From Asterias amurensis (taxonomy: Eukaryota > Echinodermata > Asteroidea > Forcipulatida > Asteriidae), in NCBI RefSeq assembly GCF_032118995.1, contig NC_092650.1, positions 4,030,001 to 4,094,000 on the forward strand: 64,000 nucleotides of DNA, given 5' to 3'. Under the pieces are notes generated by a model. It saw only the letters and a list, made by a program, of their open reading frames with translations. It searched no databases and was not told the origin of the DNA. Every line of letters starts with the position of its first letter. Position 1 is the stretch's first letter. A program made the position numbers and the translations under genes. Shown here one piece after another: positions 1,563 through 58,989 of the stretch.

Positions 1563-1963
1563 CTAACACACCTCCAGGCAAATGGTAGAAATCTCATGGC
1601 CGAAAAGAGTGCTGGTGGTGTACAAGTCATAGCCGGCACGCATCATGTAGAACTCGGCGCAGACGTAAGGGTAGGCAATGCAGGGCAGATTGCCGAGATC
1701 ACGGACGTACTCCAGGTTATCGAAACGCAGTTTGTCCTGGCCGACCTCGATCGTCTGACTGGCTTGATCGCTGTTCAATGCCTGCTTGATGATTTCTGTC
1801 TTAGCGCCCCCGCCGTTTGAGCGTGTCGCGCTCCAGAGTTTGACTTTCCAGATTTCGGTGCCCTGGATGTTGCGCTCGATGTTTAGTATGTCGACAGTCA
1901 GTTTCAGGCCGTAGTTGTTGGTGACGCCGTACAGCTCTAGACGAGTTCTGCCGAAGCTTACAT
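1563..1963 (-). CDS. Terminal exon M copy (U1)
   Basis: 401 bp. Acceptor TTATCCAG before 1963, stop at 1563. Open throughout; about 132 residues of the unrecognised domain. It carries TIEVGQDKLRFDN and CIAYPY and has two private changes (YMMRAG, FGHEI). Confidence 0.75.
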
Positions 1964-2038
1964 CTGGATAAAAGTGTAATTAGAAAAAAAGCCGAAACAA
2001 ATGAACAATTTTTAAAAAGACATCAAAATTAAATTTCA

Positions 2039-3221
2039 AAAAATAGTTAATGGCCTGACGTTTCGACCCTAGCAGAGTCTTTCTCGAACGCTAAATGACA
2101 ACACAACAAACATGAACATGAACAGGTCCAAAGGACCCAAGAAACAACAGAGTCCTACGGGGAAAGTTCCTTGTGTTGTCACTTTCCACCCCTCACTTCC
2201 TCCCATTCGTAAAATAACCAGTTCTAACCATCATATTCTTCACACATCAGATCGACTTCAACGTGCTGTGCAGGGAGAACCCATAGTTGCCTACAGACGC
2301 CCACCAAGTCTCAGGGATCTCATTGTCCGAGCAGAAGTCCCTCCCATTAATGATGATGTTAATCCCCCTCTACCACAGGGAACTTTTAGGTGTTCCAACA
2401 TCTCCAAATGCATCGTCTGTAGACAACACATCAGGGAATCGGACTCCTTCACCAGTAACACCGGCGGTACCACCCATAAGACAAGGGGTCATGTCACCTG
2501 CACCACCACTAATCTCATTTATCTCATATCTTGCAGAGTCTGTGGTGTTCAATATATAGGTGAAACAAGAACTACACTCAAGAGGTGTTTCTACGGCCAC
2601 AGATCTACAGTCAAGACCCAAAAGTTAGATACACCTGTAGGTCATCACTTCAATCTTCCTAATCACTTCATTTCTGACATGATCTTACAGGGCATAGAGG
2701 CACTAAGCAACCACAGAGAGACTGTGCGTTTGAGTAGGGAGAAACTCTGGATTAGACGCCTCCAGACCAATCAACCCCATGGTCTGAACATCCAAGAAGG
2801 AAACAACTAATTAACCTTTTGTTTTGCCGTCTCCTTTTTTCTCCATAGCCTTTTAGCCTGAGCCTCACTCACTAATAAACTACTTTTTACCCAACCTCAC
2901 CACCCTTGATGTTGTCCTTTGTGTTTCCATCTTCTTGCTTGTGGTCAAGCCAGTCCCTTCCTTTCACCCCCCCCCTTTTTGTCCCCCTATTCATTGTTTA
3001 CCCCCTGCTTTTTTATGTATGCTTTCTAACCCCATTCATGTATTTCCACTTCACTGCTTATGTTTCACTTAGTTACCTGTTCATGTTTGTTGTGTTGTCA
3101 TTTAGCCTTCGAGAAAGACTCTGCTAGGGTCGAAACATCAGGCCATTACCTATTTTTTTGCATTTATACTCTCGGTCCATTTGGTTGGTAAGTTGTTTGC
3201 AACAGCTAATTCTATTTTCTC
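2039..3221 (+). mobile_element. Penelope-like element remnant with inverted terminal repeats (U1)
   Basis: Inserted between exons M and L of the VWC copy. Flanked by a 14-bp duplication AAAATTAAATTTCA (2025-2038 and 3222-3235). The empty site in U3 and U4 has a single copy. Inverted repeats of about 85 bp (2038-2126 and 3076-3159) contain TTTCGACCCTAGCAGAGTCT and its inverse. The interior encodes a GIY-YIG protein. No reverse transcriptase remains, so the copy is internally or 5' truncated. Confidence 0.75.
2112..2810 (+). CDS. GIY-YIG endonuclease domain of a Penelope-like retroelement (U1)
   Basis: 232-residue open frame. Residues about 100-135 hold a cysteine cluster (CIVCRQH, then CTTTNLIYLISC). 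The GIY-YIG motif is LIYLISCRVCGVQYIGET, followed by R and H of the catalytic set (FYGHRST) and PVGHHFN. In Penelope-like elements this domain sits at the C-terminus after the reverse transcriptase; here the transcriptase is absent. The ATG lies in the inverted repeat and may not be a true start. Versus U2 it has GEP for EEP, an extra D in NDDVN, and C for R in KRCFYGH. Confidence 0.75.
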   Translation: MNMNRSKGPKKQQSPTGKVPCVVTFHPSLPPIRKITSSNHHILHTSDRLQRAVQGEPIVAYRRPPSLRDLIVRAEVPPINDDVNPPLPQGTFRCSNISKCIVCRQHIRESDSFTSNTGGTTHKTRGHVTCTTTNLIYLISCRVCGVQYIGETRTTLKRCFYGHRSTVKTQKLDTPVGHHFNLPNHFISDMILQGIEALSNHRETVRLSREKLWIRRLQTNQPHGLNIQEGNN

Positions 3222-3340
3222 AAAATTAAATTTCATCACGTTTAATTATTTGATCTGATCTCAGATATTAAACCTAAAAAAAAAAACCTTCATCAAAAAA
3301 GTTTTATTGTCTTGAAATCCCGCTCCTGGCTATACATTAC

Positions 3341-3520
3341 CTGGACATGTTCCACAGCAGTCTCCTTGGCCTTTAATTGGATCAGGACACCTGACTAGAG
3401 AGCAGTCTGTTGGTCCACATGATACAAAACCGTTGGAACACGTGCAGGAGATGCACGACTGGATTGGATCCGCCCACGTCTCACCACTCTGGTGCTCAGT
3501 GTTACTATGGAAGCAGCCGG
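3341..3520 (-). CDS. VWC exon L copy (U1)
   Basis: 180 bp exon. Acceptor ATCAACAG before 3520, donor GTAATG after 3341. It reads GCFHSNTEHQSGETW, CISCTC, CGPTDC and DCCGTCPG. The frame and splice sites are intact. Confidence 0.78.
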
Positions 3521-3605
3521 CTGTTGATACATTCAAAGAAATATTATTACAAAATGTTTTTAAGGGGCGAGTGTCTTCAAAAGGTTCTGTCATAGAGCTG
3601 CTTAA

Positions 3606-3957
3606 AGGCACTGTTCACGTTTGGTCTCAAAATATATATTTGCATAAAACCTCTTGGTAACGAGCAACGGAGAGCTCTTGATAGTATAAAACATTGTGAG
3701 AAACGACTCCCTCTGAAGTAACGCAGTTTTTGAGAAGGAGGTAATTTCTCACTAAAATAATAAAAGATTTCTGGCCAGAAGCCCTTTATTCCTATCTGGA
3801 AGCACACGTACAACAAGGGTGTCTTTTCTTTCATCATTTTCTTGCAACTTCAATGATCAATTAAGTCAAAATTTTCACAGGTTTGTTATTTTATGCTGTT
3901 GGGATACATCAAGTGAGAATACTGGTCTTTGATAATTACCAACCGTGTACAGTGCCT
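3606..3957. mobile_element. TTAA-flanked foldback MITE (U1 intron K-L)
   Basis: 352 bp, AGGCACTGTTCACG to its inverse near GTGTACAGTGCCT, with TTAA at 3602-3605 and 3958-3961. Present at the same place in all four units, so it predates the duplications. Confidence 0.65.
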
Positions 3958-3961
3958 TTAA

Positions 3962-5289
3962 GCACAAAAAGTAGCTTAGAACAACAACATGAGTGGTATT
4001 TTATAGAATTTGTGTTTGAAATCGCTTTATTTGTTGAAGTAATTTTCAACTTATTTAAAGGAACGTTACAGAATTGGTAAGAAACAAAAATCGCGAAGAT
4101 CACAGATTTACATAAAAATTACACGGTCTAATAATGATAGTTGAAAAAATTCCTTAAAATATTTGTGTGAAATGTCATATTTGATGAGAAATGAACAAGC
4201 TAACTTCGTGTTTGGAGTTTATCGCTCAGTGAGCGTTTTCATTTTATTTTGGCATCGATGCAATGCAAAATTTGTAATCGACTTTTCACTATTCTCTCGT
4301 GACCAAGACGGCAGATCGATCTCAAACTTCTACAGGTTTGTCTATGCATATGGTGGACTACATAAAGTGTTTACACGGCCAGCAACTGTTTTGTTAGCGA
4401 AAACCAATTCTGTAATGTTTCTTATAAGCAAATTTGACTTGGCTCAGTGGTTTCTGCCCATGCCCTCCCTTTGTGGACCCCGGTTCGGATCAGACCAGAG
4501 CCTTGCATTTAGAGTGGGTTTTCAGTCCCTACCTGATCACAGGGGTTTCCCCCATTGGGTTTTCCCAAGTCACGTAGGGATCCCAAGTCATCCTCAGTGT
4601 TGGACTTGTAGAAAGTTAACTTTTGGGATTGTCACGTGATAATCAGTCTCTTTTTCTATAGCTTTCGACTTGGAAGAGCAATTCATTTTATTTGGTCTGG
4701 ATTTCTCTCTAGTTTTATAGGGAGCATGGCTCTGGCCATGCTCCTAAAAAAAACCTATTATCTGGGAGGGATAAGTTCTAAGAGATATTTGTGAGTATTA
4801 TTTTGTGCTTTGACCCTCATATATGCCTGAATTATTGCGATTTGTAGCTCTCCATTTGGATCGTTTTAGTTTGTAAAACAATGTGTGTATGCCAGGCAGC
4901 ACCGTCACACACGTTAGCCTCTGTGTGTGCTGACCTTTTTGTGAACTTTGCGCACTGTGTAATGTAATAGGCTTCATGTAGTGTATACTGTAGTGTTATA
5001 ACTTTTTGTATGTTTTCTATGGGTTGGAAGTATTAAAACCTGTATAGAAGAGATTTTCATAAAAACGTAATTGGCTTATACTATAAGTTATAGCGTTTAT
5101 TATGATTTGATGGTATTTTGGCGAATGCTCGTCCTATTAAGTGGAGGACCAGCTCTCTCCTTCCCGTCTCTCTCTCTTACATTAACATTTCTTCTTATTC
5201 CTATTCACCCCGTTATTGGCGCTAATTTTGCTGTTGGGTGTGTAATCAAATAATAGTAATAAACATTTCTGAAATAAATAGATAACCAC
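3962..5289. other. Intron between exons K and L, unit copy; no gene accepted
   Basis: Includes a 158-codon open frame (4163-4639) also open in U2 and U3 but broken in U4 at about 52310. It has no recognisable domain and lies antisense within an intron. It is probably a chance open frame in conserved repeat sequence. Confidence 0.4.
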
Positions 5290-5480
5290 TGGGGCACAAT
5301 TTTCATAAAGCCTGCAAGCACAAAAACTGTTAAGCACAGAAAAGTATTGCTTAACAGAAACAGATTACCAGCCAGAATTAGTGTAGATTGTTGTGACTGT
5401 GCACCACTCAATCATAGCTTAGCAAAACAATCTTGTCAAGTAGTATTTTCTGCTTAACAGCTTTATGAAATTGGGCCTGG
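5290..5480. mobile_element. Foldback MITE beside exon K (U1)
   Basis: Inverted ends TGGGGCACAATTTTCATAAA and GCTTTATGAAATTGGGCCTG. It ends about 20 bp from the donor of exon K. Present in all units. Confidence 0.55.
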
Positions 5481-5498
5481 ATGATTTTTTTTACGTAC

Positions 5499-5693
5499 CT
5501 AGCACTCCACATTTCGGACAGCATTGTCCTGGCTCTGTAACAGGGTTCTCGCAGAACAACGCCGGGCATACAACTGGGCCACATTTTACCTCTCCGTCGA
5601 CACACTCGCACGTAGAGCAGTTATTATCCCAGGTGTCACCGTGTTGGTAGGTGCCTAAACCAAAGTCAAGTACACACTCCCTGAGCTCCAAAT
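5499..5693 (-). CDS. VWC exon K copy (U1)
   Basis: 195 bp exon. Acceptor CCGGCAG before 5693, donor GTACGT after 5499. It reads RECVLDFGLGTYQHGDTW, CSTCEC, CGPVVC and QCCPKCGVLG. Ten cysteines, intact. Same-strand exon next after the coiled-coil exon at 9948-10431. Confidence 0.78.
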
Positions 5694-5802
5694 CTGCCGG
5701 TAGAATTAAGGGCTAGTCAATTGACCATGGTTTTGACAGCATGAGGGCGCTTTCCACAGGAAATATTTTGTGCATCACAACAATTCTTTCATCTTATTTT
5801 AA

Positions 5803-6132
5803 AGGCCTGGACACTATTGATAATTACTCAAAAAAAATTGTTAGCATGAAAACTTACTTGGTAACAAGCAATGGAAAGTTGTAGATGGTACAAAACATTG
5901 TGAGAAACGGCTCCTGCTCAAGTAGTTTTTAAGAAAGAGGTTATTTCTCACTCTTCTGAAAGCACACACGTTTTGTGCAACAAGGTTTTTTTTTTATTAG
6001 TATTCTCTTGCAACTTTGACAACCAATTAAGTCAAAATTTTCACAGGTTTGTTAATTTATGCATATTGTTGATATACTGTACACCAAGTGAGGATACTGG
6101 TCTTTGACAGTTACCAAACTTATCCAGTGCCT
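5803..6132. mobile_element. TTAA-flanked foldback MITE upstream of exon K (U1)
   Basis: AGGCCTGGACACTATTGATA to its inverse ending CCAGTGCCT, with TTAA at 5799-5802 and 6133-6136. Shared by all units. Confidence 0.6.
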
Positions 6133-6865
6133 TTAAACAGCCTGTATGGTGTTTGCAATTACGATAAGGGAGGCCGTCTTTAACTATTAATTATTAGGTA
6201 TCACACAAATGCGATTTGCGCAATAGTACATTAGCTCAATACGCAGAGTTAGAAAAGCGCAATATCGTAATACACAAGGTGTGACATGGTCAGTGTGACA
6301 TTTATAGGTCCAAAATCGGCTAATTTGGAATAAGTCATGCGTTACACTTGAGAACGTACAAGTGAGAACCATAACTTTATGATGAGAACACACCCATTTC
6401 GCCAAACTCATTGTCCGGATCTTACTGATTTGCCACACAGACGCTATTTAGGCATGTCTTCCATGCCCAATGTGACACAGGTGTACATAATTTGTAAATC
6501 ACCCATATCTTTAGAAATAAAAAATATTTTCCCTTAATTTTTTCTTTTACATAACCTCTACTATATACTGATCATTATTATAAGTTCTAATCATTGCATT
6601 TTAACATAATTTCTAGAGAAAAAAAATGTCCAAATGCCAAGTATATTATCGTACAAGTATGTATGGTGTCTTCGTCAAACTTCAAGAGGTCATGACCTTG
6701 TCTAAAATTTCTATAGCCGTCAAAAGAGTGGGCTATTATGTGACACGGAGTTCACTGTGGGCTTTGGTGGTTGTTTTGATGAGGGGTTTTAAATTTTTCA
6801 ATTTTTTAAATGTTTTTTTTATAGATGTGACACATGTGTCACACCTCAGGGTTTAACAAACCTCA

Positions 6866-7050
6866 GAGGAAATTACTTATATAGAATTTGAGGCATTGCA
6901 TTACTCTTTCTCAAAAACGTAGTTATTTCAGAGGGAGCCGTTTCTCGCAATGTTTTATACTACCAACAGCTCTCCAATGCTCGTTATATACCAAGTAAGT
7001 TTATATGCTATAATTTTATTTTGAGGATTTAATAGTGTCCAGCGCTTTAA
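6866..7050. repeat. Truncated MITE at the fibrinogen-exon deletion junction (U2)
   Basis: Right half of the AGGCAGTGGACAC family, from GAAATTACTTATATAG to TAGTGTCCAGCGCT. The missing left half exists at 38073-38248 in U4, on the far side of the deleted fibrinogen exons. The same junction lies at about 19608 in U3. Confidence 0.65.
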
Positions 7051-7158
7051 ACTGAGTCTCTATAAACGTGTTTTGGACAAATTTAAGATACTTTAACAAG
7101 GCTTCAAAAACAACTATTACACAATATGTATTTTCACAAACTTGTCTAAAGCCTTTAA

Positions 7159-7524
7159 AAGGAAGGTACACGTTTGGTAATTACTCAAAACAAATATTAA
7201 CTTAAAAACTGACTTGGTAACGAGCATTGGAGAGCTGTTGATAATATAAAACATTGTGGGAAACGACTCCCTCTGAAGTAACGTAGTTTTTGAGAAAGAG
7301 GTAATTTCTCACTCAAATAATAAAAGACTTTTAGCTAGAAGTCTGTTATTCATATCAAAGCACAGAAGTTCGTCAAACAAGGGTGTTTTTCCTTTCATCA
7401 TTTTCTTGCAACTTCGATGACCGATTGAGCCCAAATTTTCACAGGCTTGTTATTTTATGCTTATGATAGGATACACCAAGTGAGAACACTGGTCTTTGAC
7501 AATTACCAAACGTGTACCGTGTCT
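7159..7524. mobile_element. TTAA-flanked foldback MITE (U2)
   Basis: AAGGAAGGTACACGTTTGGT to its inverse ACCAAACGTGTACCGTGTCT, with TTAA on both sides. Also present in U3 (about 19913) and U4 (about 44287). Confidence 0.6.
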
Positions 7525-7588
7525 TTAACACAATTAGCAACAACACTTATTTATTAGGATACACAAACTAAAACTTTAGAGGTATTAA

Positions 7589-7971
7589 AGGAACACGTTG
7601 CCTTGGATCGGTCGAGCTGGTCTTTGAAAAGCGTTTTGTGACCGTTTGTTATAGAATGCATATGGTTAGAAAGATGATGTAAAAGTAGAATACAATGATC
7701 TACACAAATATGCCTCGAAATTGCGTGGTTTTCTTTTTACCTCGTCCAATAACACGGTCGGCCATTTATGGGGGTCAAAATTTTGACTCCCATAAATGGG
7801 CGACGGTGATAGTTCGCGACGTAAAAAGAAAACCGTGCAATTTTGAGTGATACTTGTGTGGATCATTATATTCTACTTTTAAAACATCTTTCTAACCATA
7901 TACATTTCATAACAAACGGTTTCAAACGCTTTTTATAGACCAACTCGTCCGATCCAAGGCAACGTGTTCCT
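7589..7971. mobile_element. 383-bp TTAA foldback MITE, private to U2 (first)
   Basis: Begins AGGAACACGTTGCCTTGGAT and ends with the inverse, ATCCAAGGCAACGTGTTCCT. TTAA at 7585-7588 and 7972-7975. U4 shows the empty site GAGGTATTAAACACG. The whole element is a long hairpin centred on a CATTTATGGG/CCCATAAATG palindrome. The TTAA target is as in piggyBac-type elements, but no transposase is present. Confidence 0.82.
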
Positions 7972-8167
7972 TTAAACACGACTGGTCTTTTCCGCAGACT
8001 ATTTCCTAGGATAAACTGTGTCTCGTTATGTATAGGTTCTGTCTGCCGTGCTTAACGGGCATAGGCCTACGTCCTCGAACGCGGAGAATGCGTCCCACAG
8101 GCAGAGCGCCTCCGCTGAAATTCAGCAGGACATTTTTTTCGGTATGGTTTTGACAGTCAGACATTAA

Positions 8168-8550
8168 AGGAACACGTTGCCTTGGATCGGTCGAGTTGGT
8201 CTTTGAAAAGCCTTTGTAACCGTTTTTTATAAAATGCATATGGGTAGAAAGCTGTTGTAAAAGTAGAATACAATGATCCACACAAACATGCCTCGAAATT
8301 GCGTGGTTTTCCTTTTACCTCGTCGACTAAACACGTCGGCCATTTATGGGGGTCAAAATTTTGACTCCCATAAATGGCCGACCATGTTAGTTCGCACAGT
8401 AGAAGGAAAACCACGCAATTTTGAGGCAAACTTGTGTGGATCATTGTATTCTACTTTTAAAACATCTTTCCAACCATATGCATTTTATAAAAAACGGTTA
8501 CAAACGCTTTTGTTTTGACCAACTCGTCCGATCCAAGGCAACGTGTTCCT
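8168..8550. mobile_element. 383-bp TTAA foldback MITE, private to U2 (second)
   Basis: Same termini and length as 7589-7971, with TTAA at 8164-8167 and 8551-8554. The empty site ACATTAAAAC is seen in U3 (about 20513) and U4 (about 44900). Two independent insertions of one family lie within 1 kb. Confidence 0.82.
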
Positions 8551-8554
8551 TTAA

Positions 8555-9947
8555 AACAAAAAAGTTGCGAGCAATAAAAACAAAACTATTCGAAGACTTG
8601 TACCAACGTAGGCTTGTAACGTTAACCTTGAGAAATCATTATTTTCAAGATTATTTTACACGAAATTTTCGTGAATCCATGAACAGATGCGGACGTACTG
8701 TACAAAGATAAAAGCAGTTCCTGTCGGCCGCCCCAATGCATTTGTGTATGCTGGGGGAAGTAATAAAAAGGCTCGTGTCATCACAGGGGCTCACACGGGA
8801 TAATACCCCTGCGCACATCTAGCATGGTAGCAGGCAATGTACACACTACACACAGTTCCACAAAATAGAGCATTTTGAACAAGAAGGAACAACACATTTC
8901 TTGTTTTATTGTCTAAAAAGATTACAAGTGTCGCACAGAGGCAAAATAGATGAAGATATAAAAATAAAATAACTTATTTTTTTTTTGTCATAAAAAGATG
9001 AGAGAGGGACAAATTCCCCTCTAGCGGACAGAATCCATTAGGAGATTCTACCCCCCCCCCCCGACCTATGTGCGGAGGGACAGAACAGTCTCTGTGACAC
9101 CGAAAATCTGACTTGGGGCGAGCCTATGAAACCCCCTCCTAAAAAAAAAACACGTTTTGACCTCTCGTGTTCATTTTACATAGAGATTCGCAGTCAAATC
9201 TTACGTACATACATGAACATATTTGTATGTACATGTACATGCATGCAGATGACCGAATAGTGCAGCTGACAAAACTGACCTCGGGCCATTGGGATCAATG
9301 AAAAGCTTACGTCACTGCAAATTTATCCAATGAAATCAATCAAATTAATCATTGTATCCAATGAAACCAATGTGATATGCACTGTATAAACCCAGAGCAT
9401 GTCTTTATCCTTGGGGACAAAAGGAAATCAAATAAAGGGAAACAGCTAGACTGTTCACTGTCTTTATCCACCCTCAGATCCTTAAATGCCTTCTTAGTAT
9501 AGTTTTAACAGTAGTTTTTTTTGTCAGATAATAGACTCGACTATAATTTGTGTAACTTTCTCTTTTATTGGTGTCAATAGTTGTCTAATGTGATGTATTT
9601 TTTTGAAACTTTTTGCTCCTTCTATATTTTATACTTTTGGTAATAAGAACAACGTGGAATGCATTTTGGTAACCATTCACTTCGAAGTACTGCGGTTATG
9701 AACAAATATTTAATATAGATTCACCAAAAATTTGACTATAAGGAGGGTTACCGGTAACGCTTCTAAGAATGTGTTTTCTTATATATTATTAGGAAACATC
9801 AATTGGAAATTATTCTTCCCGCGCGGACGTGGACATGTACTACATGGATAACAAATTTCATGTGTTTTCACATGATAAATAAAAAATCATATATTGAAAT
9901 GAAACTTGACAGTAACCGAACAATGACTGCAAACAAATCAAACTTAC
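8555..9947. other. Intronic or intergenic stretch, U2; no gene seen
   Basis: AT-rich, with poly-C and poly-A tracts. Repeated in U3 and U4. It contains the site of the 4.76 kb insertion of U3 (at about 9431). Confidence 0.4.
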
Positions 9948-10431
9948 GTCTACCATGAATAAATTCCACCAGGGTAGATAGAGAGACTTGTAGGTCGTCC
10001 AACTGTCGTCTTATACCCTGTACTTCAGAGGAGGCCTTTTCTTGATTTGCTGCGACTGTGACCTTCAACTCTTCCATCTTAATTATGGCGTCCTCAAGTT
10101 CAGATGAAACAGTTTCTTGGTTGGTCGATACTGCAACCTGCAGCTCATCGACCTTCCGTCTTGTGTCCTCTAGCTCGGTGCACTCAGGGGAAACACCTTC
10201 TTGATCGTCTGTCATTAGAACTTTGAGCTCTTTCACCTGGTCTTGCGTGTTTCTGACTTCATCTTCAAGAATGACTAGGTAGTTTTCTACTATACGCCTT
10301 AACTCGTCTACCTTACGATTTGTATCTACATCACATGAAACCGTTCTCTGGTTGCTGGAAGCTTCAACTTGTAGTTCAACTTGAGACTTCACGATCAGAA
10401 AGATCAAGAGGAAACGGATAATCAACGCCAT
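9948..10431 (-). CDS. Secreted coiled-coil exon 1 of fibrinogen-related gene (U2 copy)
   Basis: 484 bp exon from ATG at 10431 to a consensus donor GTAAGT after 9948 (phase 1). It encodes 161 residues. Residues 1 to about 24 are a hydrophobic signal peptide (MALIIRFLLIFLIVKS). The rest is rich in heptads with E, K, L, V (VDELRRIVENYLVILEDEV and similar), forming a coiled coil with cysteines near residues 33 and 80 that could link chains. Such an N-terminus is typical of ficolin/FREP-like proteins that end in a fibrinogen domain. The open frame continues into the intron for 26 codons and should not be read as protein. Confidence 0.75.
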
Positions 10432-14294: not shown

Positions 14295-14695
14295 CTAACA
14301 CACCTCCAGGCAAATGGTAGAAATCTCATCGCCGAAAAGAGTGCTGGTGGTGTACAAGTCATAGCCGGCACGCGTCATGTAGAACTCGGCGCAGACGTAA
14401 GGGTAGGCAATGCAGGGCAGATTGCCGAGATCACGGACGTACTCCAGGTTATCGAAACGCAGTTTGTCCTGGCCGACCTCGATCGTCTGACTGGCTTGAT
14501 CGCTGTTCAATGCCTGCTTGATGATTTCTGTCTTAGCGCCCCCGCCGTTTGAGCGTGTCGCGCTCCAGAGTTTGACTTTCCAGTTTTCGGTGCCCTGGAT
14601 GTTGCGCTCGATGTTTAGTATGTCGACAGTCAGTTTCAGGCCGTAGTTGTTGGTGACGCCGTACAGCTCTAGACGAGTTCTGCCGAAGCTTACAT
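14295..14695 (-). CDS. Terminal exon M copy (U2)
   Basis: 401 bp, acceptor CCAG before 14695 and stop at 14295, open throughout. It carries the U1-type TIEVGQDKLRFDN and CIAYPY. AATAAA at 14258-14263. Confidence 0.75.
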
Positions 14696-16071: not shown

Positions 16072-16251
16072 CTGGACATGTTCCACAGCAGTCTCCTTGG
16101 CCTTTAATTGGATCAGGACACCTGACTAGAGAGCAGTCTGTTGGTCCACATGATACAAAACCGTTGGAACACGTGCAGGAGATGCACGACTGGATTGGAT
16201 CCGCCCACGTCTCACCACTCTGGTGCTCAGTGTTACTATGGAAGCAGCCGG
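16072..16251 (-). CDS. VWC exon L copy (U2)
   Basis: 180 bp, same acceptor and donor as U1. Appears identical in protein to the U1 copy (GCFHSN, CPDPIKG). Confidence 0.78.
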
Positions 16252-18237: not shown

Positions 18238-18432
18238 CTAGCACTCCACATTTCGGACAGCATTGTCCTGGCTCTGTAACAGGGTTCTCGCAGAACAACG
18301 CCGGGCATACAACTGGGCCACATTTTACCTCTCCGTCGACACACTCGCACGTAGAGCAGTTATTATCCCAGGTGTCACCGTGTTGGTAGGTGCCTAAACC
18401 AAAGTCAAGTACACACTCCCTGAGCTCCAAAT
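18238..18432 (-). CDS. VWC exon K copy (U2)
   Basis: 195 bp, acceptor CCGGCAG and donor GTACGT. Appears identical in protein to the U1 copy. Ten cysteines, phase 1 at both ends. Confidence 0.78.
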
Positions 18433-26674: not shown

Positions 26675-27158
26675 GTCTACCATGAATAAATTCCACCAGG
26701 GTAGATAGAGAGACTTGTAGGTCGTCCAACTGTCGTCTTATACCCTGTACTTCAGAGGAGGCCTTTTCTTGATTTGCTGCGACTGTGACCTTCAACTCTT
26801 CCATCTTAATTATGGCGTCCTCAAGTTCAGATGAAACAGTTTCTTGGTTGGTCGATACTGCAACCTGCAGCTCATCGACCTTCCGTCTTGTGTCCTCTAG
26901 CTCGGTGCACTCAGGGGAAACACCTTCTTGATCGTCTGTCATTAGAACTTTGAGCTCTTTCACCTGGTCTTGCGTGTTTCTGACTTCATCTTCAAGAATG
27001 ACTAGGTAGTTTTCTACTATACGCCTTAACTCGTCTACCTTACGATTTGTATCTACATCACATGAAACCGTTCTCTGGTTGCTGGAAGCTTCAACTTGTA
27101 GTTCAACTTGAGACTTCACGATCAGAAAGATCAAGAGGAAACGGATAATCAACGCCAT
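26675..27158 (-). CDS. Secreted coiled-coil exon 1 (U3 copy)
   Basis: 484 bp with ATG at 27158 and donor GTAAGT after 26675. The protein appears identical to the U2 copy: signal peptide then coiled coil, phase 1 end. Fibrinogen exons are absent downstream in U3. Confidence 0.75.
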
Positions 27159-33756: not shown

Positions 33757-33951
33757 CTAGCACTCCACATTTCGGACAGCATTGTCCTGGCTCTGTAACA
33801 GGGTTCTCGCAGAACAACGCCGGGCATGCAACTGGGCCACATTTTACCTCTCCGTCGACACACTCGCACGTAGAGCAGTTATTATCCCAGGTGTCACCGT
33901 GTTGGTAGGTGCCTAAACCAAAGTCGAGTACACACTCCCTGAGCTCCAAAT
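33757..33951 (-). CDS. VWC exon K copy (U3)
   Basis: 195 bp, intact, with CGPVAC as in U4 but without the 6-bp loss of U4. It could be the next in-frame exon after the U4 coiled-coil exon if the fibrinogen exons were skipped. Confidence 0.77.
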
Positions 33952-38248: not shown

Positions 38249-38416
38249 CGCCAAGGTAGGAGGAAGATGCAACACCACAAAGTAGCCACAGCAGAATACC
38301 AATTAGAATGCTTATCCAAGGACTTTTATTATAGACGGAGAAGATCGCAACAACAAAGATGGCGATGTAAACAAAGACAAACCCCTCGCAAGAGGGCGCT
38401 ATAACAACTACTGGCG
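38249..38416 (-). repeat. 3' LTR of the retrotransposon
   Basis: 168 bp. In element sense it starts CGCCAGTAGTTG and ends CCTTGGCG, so the ends are CGCCA...TGGCG rather than TG...CA. Matches 43824-43991. Confidence 0.82.
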
Positions 38417-38694
38417 CGACTACTTTTCTTTCGCTTAAACAAATGAAAGAGGGGAATGAAATCCCTTAAACAGAGAACACTACATGATAAAAAGTCAACA
38501 GTTAAAAATGTCTGAGGTCCACAGAAACAATGGACGGATGTCAAGCCACAAACAGGATACGAGGAACGCAACCGCAAAAGGGAACATAGAGCTGTCATAG
38601 GGATGGACTACCCTCTGGCCCTGGGGATTATTCTGCCCCATATAAACATACAACAAAACGAGCCAAAACACAATCCAACAGGAGAACAAGGTGA

Positions 38695-40794
38695 TTAGTC
38701 CGTAACATAGTCATCAAGGTACTTGGGAGGACGAAGCAAGCGCGAAGAGCGTCGTGGTCCAAGGGAGGGTGTGTCCTGTGAAACAACTACTGGCGGTGGT
38801 TGGGGCGATTCAAGATGGGCCTCAGGTGGATAAGGCACAGACCAGGGTTCCTCAAGAGCAGTCGGAGCAGGTGTTGAAAGCTTGCTGGGAATGTCCGGAG
38901 GATCGGGAGGACTAGGTGTCGGGACGGGGTCATGGTCCTCAGTGTCATCCTCGGTGTCTGGGCTGCAGGATGGGGGAGGGACAACGTGGGACGAAGCGGG
39001 CACCTTATAGCACTCCGAGCGGTTCACGCGATAAGAAGTACTCCTGAGTTGGTTGCCCACAAACTTCCGAACGTTACACCAAACGCCTTCGATGGAGACA
39101 ACTAGGTAGCGATTGCGACTGCGTGTCTTGTTGCGGTCAGCATGGAGGTACACAAGGTCGCCGATCTCGACAGCAGTTTCGAGGGGGGGCATCTTACCAG
39201 GGGCCTTAGCATGTTCACTATGAGGGTGATTGGCTGTGCGAAGACGCTGTTGCTCCAAAATAAGATGTTGATCGGAGAAGGGTATTTGGTGGTTAGTGAA
39301 CTGGTCACGCTGGTACCACATTTCACGGGCTGAGAGTCCACGGGAACGAATGCGTGAATTGAGGCATGAGGTAGCAACAGAAAGGGTCACAGGAGAGATG
39401 GCACCACCCATGGGGTCCTGACGGAGCAACTCATCGATAAGTTCGCGGACAGCCTTTTCCGCCACAGGGTTTTTGTTGAGGTTTTTCACCCGCCCAAGTT
39501 CGATGGACAGCCTGTGACGTCGGAGGAGCTCGTCATTGACGAGTGATTTGAAGCCAGGCGCTGGATCAGTGCGAATAACTGCCATGGGGCCATCGAGCGG
39601 CCTAAGGCCTATGCAGAGACAAATCAGTGCATCCCGCAGAGTGTTGCGGCGCTCATCTTCGATGAGGCAAGATGTGGTGAATGAAGTGGCAGTTTCCCGG
39701 AGCACGAGGATGAGCTGGCGATTACGCTTAACTACATCGGCAGCGAAGGAGAACCCAAGAGCATCTGGGGGGTCGGACGAAGACTGGAGGTGGATTGTAG
39801 ATGGGACAGTGCGAAGTGCAGCGCACTGGTGGCATCCGGTTGTAACTGTGTCAATCGACTTGTCCATGTCGAGAGCAAAGAAGTAACGATGAACGATTGA
39901 CTTGAGCTGGTGGCTAGATGGATGGTCGAGTTGAATGTGCTGCGCTGTGAGTAGGCCATCTAAAATTTGACGAGGCACAACGATGCATTCACGAGTTGGA
40001 GCGAGTGGAACATCGCGACGAACGACGATCAGACCGTCCTTGGCCAGGGATGCAACCTGAAGATAGCGCTTGACATCTTTAGCATTAGTGACCTTTTTTG
40101 AGGGGCGTGTCCCCTGCACCAGGTGTGCCCGGGTGCGGCGTAGATCAGGACATTCAGATTGGATTGCAGACCAGGCAGCCCGGCTCGTGAACGGCAACTT
40201 CACTTTACCTGTGAGAATATCCTGTGCCGATACGCGCAATACAACAGACTCCTCAGCTTGTTGGACAAATGAGCAAATCTGACAAGGAGGGCTCAAGCAG
40301 GCTGGGGCGTTACGGCTAGCAAAGTCAGACGGAATGTTGGCAGAGCCAGCGAGGTGGCGTACAGTCGCTTGGTACCGGCTGACAGTAGAGAGGAATGTGG
40401 AGACGCGGGGACTCGAGGAAAACTCACCGCGGCATAACTTCTCGTAAGCCTGTACACAAGGTTTGCTGTCGGTGAGGATGGCAGCATTGCGAGTCGACTG
40501 GATGAGATAAGGGCTGAAGTGCTTGGTCGATGCAGCAATGGAAAGGGCTTCAACTTCACAGGGCAGCCACGTGGGTTGGCGGCCGCGGAGTTTGGCGCTG
40601 AAGAAACCAGCGAGGCACAGCTTGTTTTGGCGGGTAACGTACAGAGTGGCGCCAATGCCATGGTTCTTAACTGCACCGTCAGTAACAATCCATAACTGGT
40701 CAGTAGGGCGAGGAAGCGTGATTGTGCGAGACGCCGACCGACAGAGCTGACTGTGCATTCTTGAAAGCAGAACGAGATTCGTCGGACCACACAA
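38695..40794 (-). CDS. Retrotransposon ORF2: RNase H and integrase
   Basis: 699 codons overlapping ORF1 by 95 bp in the +1 frame. The apparent methionine is not a natural start; the frame continues the polyprotein. RNase H starts with [16 protein letters not shown] (D39) and has EVEALS and ILTDSK. Integrase has a zinc motif (H291/H295, C321, C324) and a DD35E core at about D353 (FAADVV), D410 (IRTDPAPGF) and E446 ([11 protein letters not shown]). A proline-rich tail follows. The frame is intact to the stop just inside the 3' LTR. Confidence 0.82.
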
Positions 40795-43648
40795 TAGAAT
40801 CGGAGGACTGGCGTCCTGCTATGACAGTATCCAATGGGGAAAGGATTGAGGCACAGTTTGGGAGCACCCGCGCGAGTACTTTGTAGGCACCGATGAAGGA
40901 ACGCAGTGCGGATACTCTCTCCGGGATTGCGCATGTTGATAGGGTGGCGATACGGTGAGGGCTGGCATGAAGGGTGCCTGAAGACCAGATCCATCCGAGG
41001 ATAGTGGTGGTGGTCGGACAAATCACTGTCTTTTTAGCAGACAATCGTAGGCCATTGGTATAAAGGATATGAAGCACACGCCTCCAGTTGGTGAGAAGAC
41101 TGTCTAGTGTGTTTCCGCCACAATAGAGGTCATCAGCAATTTTGGCGACAACACCGTCCTTGAGAAGATCACCGAGTACGCGGCACATGAGCTCTTCAAG
41201 GGCTGTCTCGGAGCCTGGCATGCCCATGGCTGATCTGGTGTAGACACGGATGCCGCGGAAGGGAGTGGCGACTCCGCAATACTTCATGGAGGCTTTTGAA
41301 AGGGGGATCTGATAGAAGGCATTGGTGAGGTCTGTGGCAATGATGTACTTCCACTGTGCAATCAGGCGTAAGGTGGAATTGACGTCAGGCATGAGAGACG
41401 GCTGTGGCTTACTATAACGGCCAACGTCAGCAAAGGCCGTGACCAATCGAAAACCGCCATTGGACTTCTTGACGAGGAATGAAGGGTTGAGGTATTCCAC
41501 AGAGATGCCGATGTCCTCGGGGCGAGCAAAGACACCTTTTTTTTCAAGCTCGTCGAACTTCTGCTGTAGCTCCAACAATTTATCACGTGCATACTGGGGC
41601 AGGCGGCCTTTGCGCTGTGGAGGTTGCACGGGACCCATGTTGACGACGGCCTCGAAGGGGCCGGAGGCACCATTGTACCCTTTGTATTCGGTATCAAAGA
41701 CTTCATCAAATTCAGCCATAAGAGATGAGAACAGTGCTCTGGTGTCGTCAGGCAAATTGTGGTCGGGGTCCAAGCTGGCGGAGTGTGAATGGAGTTGAGC
41801 GAAGGCAGGGCGGGCCTTCGGAGTGACGTGAGAGGGCACACTTTGTTGTACTACATCGGGTGACGGGGAAGGGGTGAAGACGGGGCAAACTTGGCAGAAG
41901 TGCTCATTGCGTTTGAGAACTTGCGGTTTTGTTGACGAGTTGAGGATGCGGATTCTTCCAGCGACAGAAGTGAAGATGTCAGGGGGAGGCCACAGCCGCG
42001 ATGACTGATCGGGTCTTGCCCTGGCTGTGTCCGTGCGAGGCTCAAGAGCAAAAAGTTCATCATTTGATATGTCTTTTGGTAGGGTTAGCTCAATGAACTC
42101 CCCCGGCCAAACCGTGGTGGAAGAGGTGGGTGCACGCAAAACGTGTGCACGTCGTACGGCATTGCTTGTCGAGGGCCCCTTGGGCGAGCCATATGTTATT
42201 GCGGATCCATCGCCAAGGGTGATGAGACGTTTGGCAGGGCGGATTGCGATATCATTCACAGACATGAATGGCGTGCCGGCAAGGATGTCAACATCAAGGT
42301 TATCAACAACCAAGCCCTCGAACATGAAGGTATGGTTGTCGCGAGTGAGTCTGAGTCGAGTTTCACCAGTGATGGTGAGTGGTGAAGAACCATCAGCCTG
42401 GTGAGCAGATTGGGAGCTCTCGGTAATATGGGCACCCAGGCGCTTTGCTGTGGATGCACGAATCATATTGCCCGTGGCGCCGCTATCAATGGTGACACGG
42501 GTGGTATGATGGCCATAAAACATGTCCATGTAGGGGGATTGGTTGATCTGCACTCGGAATGACGCAGGGGCCTCAACATGGGGAGATGGGATCGAGGTGC
42601 ATGAATCCCCATCATGATCCGACTCAATATCTGTGGGCTGGTCATCAAATATGTCCGCAACTTTTCGGGCTCTCACGATGTACTTACGGTCATGTTCTGG
42701 TAAGTATGTGCATTCGCTGAGGAAGTGGCGGGTGTCACTGCGACCGACTTGCTTGCACAGAGGGCATGTCTTCTGGGGATGTGCAGGACGGGGCTTTGAG
42801 TTGGGGGGGAACCGGCCGCTGGGGGCAGAGGTAAAAGAAGCAGTACGAGGTGTGTTCAGTGGGCGAGTGGTGAAGGCTCGCATGGCCTTAGCATCGTCAC
42901 TGTTATGCACTTCATCTAGCAGTGAGTCCAAGGCCTGGGAAATTTCCGGTTTGATTGAAGCTAGGGTGCGTGACCGTAATTCCGTCCCGTACCGTTGTTT
43001 GACAAATTTTGGTAAGTTGGTGTGGATAAGGCGGAGCCAAGTGAGGACAACAAAATTCTCAAGGGAAGGGGAGAGCTCCTCATCTTCAGTGACTTCTTCC
43101 CCATGGTGGGAGATTCCTCCATTGCACTGGAGCAAATTATCCTCAACAAATGCCATGAGGCGCTGGTATAAGTCCTCTGGGCGTTCATCCGGTTGGAGGT
43201 GGATGTCAGCAAAATCGAGTAAGTGTGCGCCAGTAGACTGGAAGCCATAATGGAGGCGAATCACTTGCCAGATATTACAGATTGATGTGGAAGATTTGAT
43301 AATGGTGTTACGTGAGATAACAGGGCAATAATTTGCAATCTGGCCCAGCATAAGCTCAAGCATGTTGACTTTCTGTTGAGCTGTTTTACGTTGGGGCAAG
43401 GGGATGTCATCGGCATCATCAGTGAATCCACGGAGGGGAGAAGTTTTGGCCTTTTTCTCCCACTGTGAGCCATCGAGTAGAAACGGAGCAAAATTCTGGT
43501 CGAGGGAGAGAGTGTAGTGCAAATTCTGACGCCAATTTTCGAAAGAGTTCACAGTTTCAATTTTATTCAAGCACCACTGTTTTGGTGCCCGATGTGTGGT
43601 AGCCATAGTAAGTAAGGCGGTGAGAATAATGGCTAAAAGGCAAAGCAA
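40700..43648 (-). CDS. Retrotransposon ORF1: Gag, protease and reverse transcriptase
   Basis: 982 codons; the likelier start is the second methionine ([11 protein letters not shown], at 43606). Gag-like region to about residue 280. A C-x2-C-x9-H-x4-C zinc motif lies at about 295-313 (CPLCKQ...HFLSEC). Aspartic protease DSGATGN is at about 388-394. Reverse transcriptase spans about 720-900 with [29 protein letters not shown] and the catalytic IADDLY at about 837-842. The frame ends in the RT/RNase H connection ([15 protein letters not shown] then a stop). The continuation is in the +1 frame, so it is a frameshift mutation, a sequence error or, less likely, recoding. Confidence 0.82.
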
Positions 43649-43823
43649 AATGTATGGTACGATTAGTCAAATGTATCTTGACTGCACTGCCGCTCACCTG
43701 TATAGTGAACTGAAAGACCACGTTGTGACGAACCGGAGATCCGTTGCGTTGGAACGGCGTCGAGAAAACTGCACTTTCTTTCACCTTTATGGAAGCGAGG
43801 GACGTTTCAGAACGCTGCCACCA

Positions 43824-43991
43824 CGCCAAGGTAGGAGGAAGATGCAACACCACAAAGTAGCCACAGCAGAATACCAATTAGAATGCTTATCCAAGGACTT
43901 TTATTATAGACGGAGAAGATCGCAACAACAAAGATGGCGATGTAAACAAAGACAAACCCCTCGCAAGAGGGCGCTATAACAACTACTGGCG
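43824..43991 (-). repeat. 5' LTR of the retrotransposon
   Basis: 168 bp, same sequence as 38249-38416 by eye. It should contain the element's promoter; no clear TATA was assigned. Confidence 0.82.
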
Positions 43992-46295: not shown

Positions 46296-46779
46296 GTCTA
46301 CCATGAATAAATTCCACCAGGGTAGATAGAGAGACTTGTAGGTCGTCCAACTGTCGTCTTATACCCTGTATTTCAGAGGAGGCCTTTTCTTGATTTGCTG
46401 CGACTGTGACCTTCAACTCTTCCATCTTAATTATGGCGTCCTCAAGTTCAGATGAAACAGTTTCTTGGTTGGTCGATACTGCAACCTGCAGCTCATCGAC
46501 CTTCCGTCTTGTGTCCTCTAGCTCGGTGCACTCAGGGGAAACACCTTCTTGATCGTCTGTCATTAGAACTTTGAGCTCTTTCACCTGGTCTTGCGTGTTT
46601 CTGACTTCATCGTCAAGAATGACTAGGTAGTTTTCTACTATACGCCTTAACTCGTCTACCTTACGATTTGTATCTACATCACATGAAACCGTTCTCTGGT
46701 TGCTGGAAGCTTCAACTTGTAGTTCAACTTGAGACTTCACGATCAGAAAGATCAAGAGGAAACGGATAATCAACGCCAT
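46296..46779 (-). CDS. Secreted coiled-coil exon 1 (U4 copy)
   Basis: 484 bp, ATG at 46779 and GTAAGT donor after 46296. Two conservative differences from U2/U3 (ILDDEV for ILEDEV, SEIQG for SEVQG). A TATA-like AGTATATAC lies about 80 bp upstream of the ATG. Confidence 0.75.
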
Positions 46780-50640: not shown

Positions 50641-51041
50641 CTAACACGCCTCCAGGCAAATGGTCGAAATCTCATCGCCGAAAAGAGTGCTGGTGGTGTA
50701 CAAGTCATAGCCGGCACGCGTCATGTAGAACTCGGCGCAGACGTAAGGGTAAGAAGTGCAGGGCAGATTGCCGAGATCACGGACGTACTCCAGGTTTTCG
50801 AAGCTCAGTTTGTCGTCGCCGACCCCGATCGTCTGACTGGCTTGATCGCTGTTCAATGCCTGCTTGATGATTTCTGTCTTAGCGCCCCCGCCGTTTGAGC
50901 GTGTCGCGCTCCAGAGTTTGACTCTCCAGATTTCGGTGCCCTGGATGTTGCGCTCGATGTTTTGTATGTCGACAATCAGTTTCAGGCCATAGTTGTTGGT
51001 GACGCCGTACAGCTCTAGACGAGTTCTGCCGAAGCTTACAT
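50641..51041 (-). CDS. Terminal exon of the VWC gene (U4 copy, exon M); unrecognised C-terminal domain
   Basis: 401 bp last exon. Acceptor TTATCCAG before 51041, stop at 50641. It encodes about 132 residues in phase with the preceding VWC exon (codon split g/at giving D). The domain starts VSFGRTRLELYGVTNNYG and ends ISTICLEAC. I see alternating hydrophobic residues suggesting beta strands, few cysteines (CTSYPYVC, then CLEAC), and no transmembrane segment. I do not recognise the family. It may be a beta-sandwich module peculiar to such VWC proteins. The U4 copy shares TIGVGDDKLSFEN with U3, against TIEVGQDKLRFDN in U1/U2. An AATAAA lies 32 bp past the stop. Confidence 0.8.
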
Positions 51042-51222
51042 CTGGATAAAAGTGTAATTAGAAAAAAAAGCCGAAACAAATGAACAATTTTTAAAAAGAC
51101 ATTAAAATTAAATTTCATCACGTTTAATTATTTGATCTGATCTCAGATATTAAACCTAAAAAAAAAAACCTTCATCAAAAAAGTTTTATTATCTTGAAAT
51201 CCCGCTCCTGGCTATACATTAC

Positions 51223-51402
51223 CTGGACATGTTCCACAGCAGTCTCCTTGGCCTCTAATTGGATCAAGACACCTGACTAGAGAGCAGTCTGTTGGTCCAC
51301 ATGATACAAAACCGTTGGAACACGTGCAGGAGATGCACGACTGGATTGGATCCGCCCACGTCTCACCACTCTGGTGCTCAGTGTTACGATGAAAGCAGCC
51401 GG
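51223..51402 (-). CDS. VWC exon 12 (U4 copy, exon L)
   Basis: 180 bp exon. Acceptor ATCAACAG before 51402, donor GTAATG after 51223. It reads GCFHRNTEHQSGETW, CISCTC, CGPTDC and DCCGTCPG. Ten cysteines. It matches U3 (GCFHRN, CLDPIRG) and differs from U1/U2 (GCFHSN, CPDPIKG). Confidence 0.85.
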
Positions 51403-53001
51403 CTGTTGATACATTCAAAGAAATATTATTACAAAATGTTTTTAAGGGGCGAGTCTTCAAAAGGTTCTGTCATAGAGCTGCTTAAAGGCACTGTTCACGT
51501 TTGGTCTCAAAATATATATTTGCATAAAACCTCTTGGTAACGAGCAACGGAGAGCTCTTGATAGTATAAAACATTGTGAGAAACGACTCCCTCTGAAGTA
51601 ACGCAGTTTTTGAGAAAGAGGTAATTTCTCACTAAAATAATAAAAGATTTCTGGCCAGAAGCCCTTTATTCCTATCTGGAAGCACACGTACAACAAGGGT
51701 GTCTTTTCTTTCATCATTTTCTTGCAACTTCAATGATCAATTAAGTCAAAATTTTCACAGGTTTGTTATTTTATGCTGTTGGGATACATCAAGTGAGAAT
51801 ACTGGTCTTTGATAATTACCAACCGTGTACAGTGCCTTTAAGCACAAAAAGTAGCTTAGAACAACAACATGAGTGGTATTTTATAGAATTTGTGTTTAAA
51901 ATCGCTTTATTATTGAAGTAATTTTCAACTTATTTAAAGGAACGTTACAGAATTGGTAAGAAACAAAATCGCGAAGATCACAGATTTACATAAAAATTAC
52001 ACGGTCTAATAATGATGATAGTTGAAAAAATCCCTTAAAATATTTCTGTCTGAAATGTCATATTTGATGAGAAATAAACAATCTAACTTCGTGTTTGGAG
52101 TTTATCGCTCAGTGAGCGTTTTCATTTTATTTTGGCATCGATGCAATGCAAAATTTGTAATCGACTTTTCACTATTCTCTCGTGACCAAGACGGCGGATC
52201 GATCTCAAACTTCTACAGGTTTGTCTATGCACATGGTGGACTACATAAAGTGTTTACACGGCCAGCAACTGTTTTGTTAGCGAAAACCAATTCTGTAATG
52301 TTTCTTTAAGCAAACTTGACTTGGCTCAGTGGTTTCTGCCCATGCCCTCCCTTTGTGGACCCCGGTTCGGATCAGACCAGAGCCTTGCATTTAGAGTGGG
52401 TTTTCAGTCCCTACCTGATCACAGGGGTTTCCCCCATTGGGTTTTCCCAAGTCACGTAGGGATCCCAAGTCATCCTCAGTGTTGGACTTGTAGAAAGTTA
52501 ACTTTTGGGATTGTCACGTGATAATCAGTCTCTTTTTCTATAGCTTCGACTTGGAAGAGCAATTCATTTTATTTGGTCTGGATTTCTCTCTAGTTTTATA
52601 GGGAGCATGGCTCTGGCCATGCTCCTAAAAAAAAACTATTATCTGGGAGGGATAAGTTCTAAGAGATATTTGTGAGTATTATTTTGTGCTTTGACCCTCA
52701 TATACATGTATGCCTGAATTATTGCGATTTGTAGCTCTCCATTTGGATCGTTTTATTTTGTAAAACAATGTGTGTATGCCAGGCAGCACCATCACACACG
52801 TGTGTCCGTTAGCCTCTGTGTGTGCAGACCTTTTTGTGAACTTTGCGCACTGTGTAATGTATATAGGCTTCATGTAGTGTATACTGTAGTGTTATAACTT
52901 TTTGTATGTTTTCTTTGGGTTGGAAGTATTAAAACCTGTATAGAAGAGATTTTCATAAAAACGTAATTGGCTTAAAGCATTTATTATGATTTGATGGTAT
53001 T

Positions 53002-53254
53002 ATAGCGTTGACCGTGGGTTGCGTTGTACACAGTTTAATGACACAATTGAAGGAACAATTAACTGCCTTTTCTGTCCGTTTCTTTGGAGGTTTATTCACA
53101 CACAACAAGTCATAAAATTACACGAAGCAGAAACCTAAGCCAGAGAGCGCCCTCTCCAGCGAGCAGACACGATCGGCTTGTCTGGGCCACAAGCGTTGCT
53201 CCGAAGGGGAGTCATGCTGGTGCCCCCTACTGGTCGATCGGCACCGCTGCTACA
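53002..53254. mobile_element. Solo-LTR-like repeat private to U4
   Basis: ATAGCGTTGACCG to CGCTGCTACA, flanked by GTATT on both sides (52997-53001, 53255-53259). The empty site in U1-U3 is GGTATTTTGGCG. It lies in the intron between exons K and L. Confidence 0.6.
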
Positions 53255-53636
53255 GTATTTTGGCGAATGCTCGTCCTTTATTAAGTAGGTGACCGGCTCT
53301 CTCCTTCCCGTCTCTCTCTCTCTTACATTAACATTTCTTCTCATTCCTATCCACCCCGTTATTGGCGGTAATTTTGCTGTTCGGTGTGTAATCAAATAAT
53401 AGCAATAAACATTTCTGAAATAAGTAGATAACCACTGGGGCACAATTTTCATAAAGCCTGCAAGCACAAAAAACTGTTAAGCACAGAAAAGTATTGCTTA
53501 ACAGAAACAGATTACCAGCCAGAATTAGTGTAGATTGTTGTGACTGTGCACCACTCAATCATAGCTTAGCAAAACAATCTTGTCAAGTAGTATTTTCTGC
53601 TTAACAGTTTGGGCCTGGATGATTTTTTTTACGTAC

Positions 53637-53825
53637 CTCCACATTTCGGACAGCATTGTCCTGGCTCTGTAACAGGGTTCTCGCAGAACAACGCCGGGCA
53701 TGCAACTGGGCCACATTTTACCTCTCCGTCGACACACTCGCACGTAGAGCAGTCATTATCCCAGGTGTCACCATGTTGGTAGGTGCCTAAACCAAAGTCG
53801 AGTACACACTCCCTGAGCTCCAAAT
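53637..53825 (-). CDS. VWC exon 11 (U4 copy, exon K)
   Basis: 189 bp exon. Acceptor CCGGCAG before 53825, donor GTACGT after 53637. It reads RECVLDFGLGTYQHGDTW, CSTCEC, CGPVAC and QCCPKC. Compared with the copies in U1-U3 it lacks 6 bp at the exon 3' end (two codons after KCG), which keeps the frame. This is the copy contiguous with the upstream VWC exons and is probably the one used by the main gene. Confidence 0.84.
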
Positions 53826-57664: not shown

Positions 57665-57678
57665 TTAAGGACAATTAC

Positions 57679-58928: not shown

Positions 58929-58989
58929 GTTGAGAAGGTATTGCATTCTGCACTACCAACCAGGCTCCAAAAGTGGATGATACTAATGC

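What the first reader, a model, noticed from the sequence alone, without database searches (positions are those of the whole stretch)
1563..10431. Possible new chimeric gene made by the tandem duplication (signal peptide/coiled coil joined to VWC)
The duplication places a start exon from a fibrinogen-related gene directly upstream, in sense, of a copy of the last three exons of the VWC gene. In U2 the fibrinogen exons are deleted, so the next recognised exon is VWC exon K. The donor phase (1) fits, and the frame stays open over 1260 nt to a natural stop with AATAAA. All splice sites are intact in sequence that is otherwise mostly repeats. That would give a secreted oligomerising protein with two VWC modules and a novel C-terminal domain.
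Basis: partly seen in the sequence, partly recalled or inferred. Interest (0 to 1): 0.85.

Follow-up and report, generated by a model that had tools for sequence, protein, structure and literature searches.

The report
Young sea-star fusion gene array
In a sea star, repeated duplication of two neighbouring genes, with loss or damage of the fibrinogen-like exons between them, has left three copies of a predicted fusion gene for a secreted protein; one copy is already a predicted protein in public databases, but no RNA evidence could be checked here.

Summary
Observation confirmed. On the minus strand, exon E1 (10431-9948), K (5693-5499), L (3520-3341) and T (1963-1563) join in frame: 1260 nt, 419 aa. 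The arrangement occurs three times: E1 at 46779, 27158 and 10431, each followed by a K-L-T copy; a fourth K-L-T belongs to the parent VWC gene. A protein search found a 419-aa Asterias amurensis entry (P0001) identical to the rightmost version (E1 46779 + K/L/T 33951-31017), skipping frame-broken fibrinogen exons and an LTR retrotransposon. So the fusion is already a database gene model, in an array. E1 is the first exon of Asterias fibrinogen-related proteins.

Intact splice sites and frame are weak evidence: the copies are mostly 97-99% alike. More telling, last-exon differences between copy pairs 1/2 and 3/4 are 13 of 401 against 13 of 3482 in surrounding non-coding DNA (p=4e-7), 12 of them amino-acid changing. 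That suggests rapid protein evolution or conversion; N:S alone is not significant (p=0.10). No transcript could be examined. Closest known case: Drosophila Sdic. New member of a known kind.

The parts
9948..10431 (-). E1 copy a: first exon, probable signal peptide and coiled coil, donor C|gtaagt (phase 1)
   Evidence: 59-62% identical to the start of four Asterias fibrinogen-related proteins
5499..5693 (-). VWC exon K copy 1
   Evidence: Pfam VWC 1.6e-11
3341..3520 (-). VWC exon L copy 1
   Evidence: Pfam VWC 2.5e-9
1563..1963 (-). last exon T copy 1, stop TAG; AATAAA at 1531
   Evidence: no Pfam match up to E=1, no significant PDB match
26675..27158 (-). E1 copy b (identical in nucleotides to copy a)
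18238..18432 (-). VWC exon K copy 2
16072..16251 (-). VWC exon L copy 2
14295..14695 (-). last exon T copy 2
46296..46779 (-). E1 copy c, in database protein P0001
   Evidence: exact match
33757..33951 (-). VWC exon K copy 3, in P0001
31598..31777 (-). VWC exon L copy 3, in P0001
31017..31417 (-). last exon T copy 3, in P0001
36518..37926 (-). only fibrinogen C-domain exons found (2-4), broken by frame shift and stop near 37785
   Evidence: Pfam Fibrinogen_C 1e-26, 9.9e-22, 4.4e-13; frames split
38249..43991 (-). LTR retrotransposon inside intron 1 of copy c; edges taken from a 168-bp identical terminal match
   Evidence: RT, RNase H, protease and integrase zinc-binding Pfam matches, the last below its cut-off
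50641..63769 (-). parent multi-VWC gene: 13 exons in the window, ending K4 53825-53637, L4 51402-51223, T4 51041-50641; 5' part probably lies beyond the window
   Evidence: Pfam VWC in the four parent exon ORFs tested
2039..3221 (+). insertion in the L-T intron of units 1 and 2 only, with a 245-aa GIY-YIG-like ORF (2073-2810); Penelope-like by my own recognition
   Evidence: GIY-YIG 8.7e-4, below Pfam cut-off

Best explanation
This is a young tandem array of fusion genes in Asterias amurensis. Read from sequence: a segment holding the last three exons of a large VWC (kielin/chordin-like) gene plus the neighbouring fibrinogen-related gene was tandemly duplicated; in units 1 and 2 the fibrinogen exons were deleted, and in unit 3 they are frame-broken and follow a retrotransposon in intron 1. 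Each of three E1 first exons now lies upstream, in sense and in compatible phase, of a complete K-L-T 3' end. Inferred: the fibrinogen gene's promoter drives E1, which splices across 4.3, 8.2 or 12.3 kb to K, giving three 419-aa secreted proteins with an N-terminal coiled coil (probably oligomerising), two VWC modules (possibly binding BMP-type ligands or matrix) and the parent's unclassified C-terminal domain.
For: P0001 (NCBI, UniRef; 419 aa) equals E1c+K3+L3+T3 with 0 of 419 differences and spans the broken fibrinogen exons. Its 90% cluster has 3 members on one contig, the number expected if all three units are modelled; the members cannot be listed. Its contig length, 28,598,918, equals the longest contig of the published A. 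amurensis assembly (Table 3 of PMC10625585). All three frames are open. The 140 bases upstream of E1 differ at only two positions among the three copies and hold a TATATA-like stretch; T keeps AATAAA in all four copies. No frame-breaking indel in K, L or T, against 13 indel events not private to unit 4 in the non-coding segments aligned (30 events in all); about 2.8 expected in the coding part, P about 0.06 (my arithmetic). T carries an excess of amino-acid changes. Precedent: in D. yakuba 24 of 76 chimeras from tandem duplication were upregulated (PMC5460883, one results section read).
Against: No RNA read or cDNA was examined, and the database model could be ab initio. Copies are so young that open frames and splice sites are expected without selection: the chance of no stop after 25 random substitutions is 0.37. 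N:S in T (12:1) is not significant alone (p=0.10), and between units 1 and 2 T shows no excess once T's own 3' flank is counted (3/401 against 18/3482, p=0.37). In unit 3, E1 might still splice to the dead fibrinogen exons. AlphaFold models are too poor to support any fold (mean pLDDT 40.6 and 35.8).
Confidence: 0.6

Rival explanations
1. Non-functional debris: E1 orphans and K-L-T orphans of a recent segmental duplication, silent or transcribed only as noise; the database model comes from a gene predictor stitching the nearest in-frame exons.
For: Copies mostly 97-99% alike; intact frames are not surprising at this age; the VWC exons fit phase 1-1, so such junctions read through; retrotransposon and GIY-YIG insertions in the introns.
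Against: Between unit pairs, exon T departs more than non-coding DNA (13/401 against 13/3482, p=3.7e-7), which loss of constraint alone should not give; no coding indel among units 1-3.
Confidence: 0.28
2. The K-L-T copies serve as alternative 3' ends of the parent VWC gene (exon J spliced to K4, K3, K2 or K1) rather than partners of E1.
For: Same strand and downstream; J has a phase-1 donor at 55550 and every K copy has the same acceptor.
Against: The transcript would have to pass T4 and its AATAAA and skip E1; P0001 starts at E1.
Confidence: 0.05
3. Assembly artefact: haplotypes or copies of one unit wrongly strung together.
For: Unit divergence (about 1%) is like the heterozygosity of 0.96% reported for another A. 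amurensis assembly (PMC11090083, passages read); units are about as long as or longer than the 12.5-kb mean HiFi read.
Against: Units differ structurally (8.7-kb deletion, 4.7-kb insert, retrotransposon, 1.2-kb insert); P0001 comes from a single 28.6-Mb contig, and the authors ran purge_dups.
Confidence: 0.07

Closest known systems
Sdic gene family of Drosophila melanogaster (PMC7475035; abstract, introduction and two results sections read)
   Same: Segmental duplication of two adjacent genes, deletions that fuse them, tandem expansion to several near-identical copies, TE insertions, copies differing mainly at the C-terminal end with a positive-selection signal there.
   Different: Different genes and phylum; Sdic is expressed and affects sperm competition by that paper, here nothing beyond sequence is shown.
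Chimeric genes from tandem duplication in D. yakuba (PMC5460883; abstract and one results section read)
   Same: 5' end of one gene joined to 3' end of a neighbour by tandem duplication.
   Different: Those segregate in populations and have RNA data; here the chimera is multi-copy in one assembly.
Asterias fibrinogen-related proteins with the E1-type N-terminus (P0002-P0005, P0007-P0020)
   Same: Same first exon: 59-62% identity over about 150-160 aa for the four compared; same HGR|L junction in P0003.
   Different: They carry Fibrinogen_C; here VWC-VWC-T.
Kielin/chordin-like and CRIM1-type multi-VWC proteins (P0021-P0038)
   Same: VWC modules related to K and L: all 18 match K+L at 31-46% identity.
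   Different: None of the 18 matches exon T up to E=10.

Membership tests
Young chimeric gene from tandem duplication (Sdic kind) | Parts derive from two identifiable parent genes | tested here: met
   E1 from a fibrinogen-related gene; K-L-T from the VWC gene whose own copy lies at 53825-50641
Young chimeric gene from tandem duplication (Sdic kind) | Joined by duplication plus deletion | tested here: met
   Unit 1 base 6872 meets unit 3 bases 35274 and 43994, i.e. 8.7 kb with the fibrinogen exons is missing
Young chimeric gene from tandem duplication (Sdic kind) | Open reading frame across the join | tested here: met
   419 codons in all three units
Young chimeric gene from tandem duplication (Sdic kind) | Transcribed and spliced across the join | not testable with these tools
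   No RNA-seq or cDNA collection held; only the gene model P0001
Young chimeric gene from tandem duplication (Sdic kind) | Selection on the protein | tested here: inconclusive
   T: 12N:1S fixed between unit pairs; N rate far above non-coding rate (p=8.5e-8) but N:S alone p=0.10; between units 1 and 2 no excess when all non-coding segments are used (p=0.37); no outgroup
VWC-domain protein | PF00093 above gathering score | tested here: met
   K 44.7 and L 37.7 bits, cut-off 27.6; P0001 64.7 bits
Fibrinogen-related protein (FREP) | Fibrinogen_C domain in the product | tested here: not met
   P0001 has VWC only at E up to 0.01; no such exon found in units 1 and 2

The most novel reading that the evidence does not exclude
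The array is a functioning three-member family of lineage-specific secreted fusion proteins, found by the search as an annotated 230-733 aa protein in no species other than A. amurensis, whose C-terminal domain has been driven to change by positive selection since the fusion: a starfish counterpart of Sdic built from an immune-type coiled-coil stalk and a BMP-modulator tail.
Probability: 0.27. Interest if true: 0.68.

Novelty: new member of a known kind. Interest (0 to 1): 0.48.

Why it matters
Fusion genes this young, with both parents' traces, the deletion scar and several copies still in place, show directly how domain shuffling makes new secreted proteins. Outside Drosophila few such cases are laid out step by step (my own knowledge, not searched systematically). 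If the last exon's excess of amino-acid change is selection, the array gives a natural series of the same fusion at different stages, in an echinoderm of ecological weight.

Tried and rejected
Considered and rejected: E1-K-L-T as the ancestral gene with fibrinogen exons added later (rejected: P0003 has E1 joined to the fibrinogen domain at the same HGR|L boundary). The C-terminal exon as a known domain: no Pfam match up to E=1, no PDB match better than E=0.51, and of the 38 proteins returned by three protein searches only P0001 matches it.

Led nowhere: two AlphaFold jobs (mean pLDDT 40.6 and 35.8), so no fold search was made; alignment A1 mixed unrelated domains and was not used; Rfam gave 0 matches at gathering threshold. 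Paper searches, listings with abstract starts only: starfish with chimeric gene and tandem duplication (2 papers, neither relevant by title), fibrinogen-related with starfish and coiled coil (0), Asterias with fibrinogen-related (14 papers, 10 listed). Slips mended: one search printed N:S tests with 13:1 and 17:3; the right fixed counts are 12:1 (T) and 16:3 (K+L+T), tested. In one search two fibrinogen exon queries (FReD2, FReD4) were translated in a wrong frame; they served only to locate the exons, and repeats the point with database proteins. In one search two parent exons had wrong acceptors (mended); the comparison with P0001 failed through a file-reading slip (redone).
Full report
What the window is. 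The window is very probably from Asterias amurensis. The database protein P0001 (source name 'uncharacterized protein [Asterias amurensis]') is identical, 419 of 419 residues, to exons read from the window. The length of its contig, 28,598,918, is the longest contig of the assembly of Wang et al. 2023 (PMC10625585, Methods read in part; deposited as GCA_032118995.1, passage read). That assembly used PacBio HiFi reads of mean 12.5 kb and purge_dups.

Anatomy. All genes discussed are on the minus strand. From right to left: a multi-VWC gene (13 exons in the window from 63769 to 50641; its 5' end probably lies outside), ending in exons K4, L4 and T4; then E1c (46779-46296); an LTR retrotransposon (38249-43991); fibrinogen exons (37926-36518); K3-L3-T3 (33951-31017); E1b (27158-26675); K2-L2-T2 (18432-14295); E1a (10431-9948); K1-L1-T1 (5693-1563). 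The finding given concerns only the leftmost E1-K-L-T set; its coordinates and phases are right.

Where the parts come from. E1 gives 161 aa with a hydrophobic start. Its coiled coil is inferred: the best heptad register has 20 of 36 a/d positions hydrophobic (no control), and a poor single-sequence model makes it helical (blocks of pLDDT 43-69). Matches to P0002, P0003, P0004 and P0008, the four compared, run over about 150-160 aa at 59-62% identity. In P0003 the residues at the junction, HGRLALPKDCSEI, match the window's E1 end (HGR) followed by its fibrinogen exon 2 (AYPKDCSEI). So E1 plus fibrinogen exons was one gene. Those fibrinogen exons now sit in two frames with a stop near 37785, and no second set was found in the window. 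K, L and T match the parent's last three exons at 95-100% (K, L) and 91-99% (T) amino-acid identity.

How the fusion arose. Unit 1 base 6872 aligns to 35274 and base 6869 to 43994 of unit 3; the 8.7 kb between, with all the fibrinogen exons, is missing in units 1 and 2, with the letters GAAA shared at both edges. Units 1 and 2 also share an insertion in the L-T intron (2039-3221 in unit 1), absent from units 3 and 4. The simplest order (inference) is: duplication of the segment from intron J-K to beyond the fibrinogen exons; deletion and insertion in one copy; duplication of that copy; insertion of a 4.7-kb stretch in unit 2. The deletion edge lies within 3 bases of the retrotransposon's edge (43991 against 43994), which I cannot fully explain.

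Is it more than chance? The open frame is not. The twelve VWC exons read here all fit phase-1 boundaries and have lengths divisible by three, so E1 reads into such exons; I picked the boundaries from phase-1 candidates only, so this is a consistent fit rather than a blind test. With a stop fraction of 3.9% per random substitution, no stop in 25 substitutions has probability 0.37. Indels are a little more telling: 30 events in the non-coding segments, 17 private to unit 4 and 13 not. The 13 predict about 2.8 in 759 coding bases; none is seen (Poisson about 0.06, my arithmetic). The one coding indel is six bases, in frame, between unit 4 and the rest.

A signal in the last exon. On gap-free alignment columns of the four units, differences that separate units 1+2 from 3+4 are T 13/401, L 4/180, K 2/189 and non-coding 13/3482. 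T against non-coding: p=3.7e-7; L p=0.008; K p=0.18; T against only its own flank (4/948): p=8.4e-5. In T 12 of 13 change an amino acid; in K+L+T 16 of 19. Against this: N:S alone is p=0.10 (T) and 0.22 (K+L+T); synonymous changes are also somewhat raised (3 of about 201, p=0.053); and the changes in T are clustered (p=0.013), so conversion from a diverged relative is possible. Between units 1 and 2 themselves T differs at 3 bases, all amino-acid changing; against the two non-coding segments nearer K and L (1 of 2534) that is an excess (p=0.009), but T's own 3' flank differs at 17 of 948, 16 of them changes in unit 1 alone, and with it counted there is none (3/401 against 18/3482, p=0.37). Changes private to units 3 and 4 show no excess in exons (4/770 against 36/3482, p=0.22). 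Without an outgroup the direction is unknown.

Is it used? P0001 shows that an annotation pipeline joins E1c to K3 over 12.3 kb, passing the broken fibrinogen exons. Its 90%-identity cluster has 3 members; the other two possible fusions are 96% identical to it (16 and 17 of 419 differences), so the three members may be the three units, but I could not list them. Whether RNA supports the model I could not see. In the search (20 hits, proteins of about 230-733 aa) no other protein has this architecture; the other 19 share the E1-type N-terminus and come from A. amurensis or A. rubens, 18 with a fibrinogen domain and one, P0006, with SRCR domains.

Function (inferred). Signal peptide, coiled coil for oligomerisation, two VWC modules, and a 133-residue C-terminal part with no recognised family. 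By analogy with VWC proteins (established knowledge, not tested here) it could bind BMP-type ligands or matrix; by analogy with fibrinogen-related proteins the promoter may give immune-cell or coelomic expression. Neither is shown.

Known kind. The match to Sdic is close: adjacent genes duplicated, fused through deletions, tandemly expanded, TE insertions, C-terminal divergence with positive selection (PMC7475035). So this is a new member of a known kind, in a new phylum and with new parts, and already present as an unnamed database model.

Noticed in passing
   Followed up: partly
1563-1963, 14295-14695, 31017-31417, 50641-51041: Last exon T differs between copy pairs 1/2 and 3/4 far more than its flank (13/401 against 4/948), nearly all amino-acid changing and clustered.
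   Followed up: yes
687-1478: The 3' flank of unit 1's T exon is diverged from the other three units (16 of 948 positions in that flank private to unit 1, rising to the left), as if near an older border.
   Followed up: no
6869-6872, 35274, 43991-43994: The edge of the fibrinogen-exon deletion in units 1 and 2 lies within 3 bases of the retrotransposon's edge in unit 3.
   Followed up: partly
21396-26158: Unit 2 alone carries a 4.7-kb insert made largely of a 2.3-kb sequence in tandem, 98% alike.
   Followed up: no
5499-5510 and copies; 53637: Exon K of units 1-3 has six more bases (TGCTAG) at its donor than the parent's K4, adding two residues in frame.
   Followed up: partly
7582-7975 and 8164-8557: A 394-nt inverted repeat, 84% complementary, in intron 1 of unit 1, probably a foldback mobile element.
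   Followed up: no
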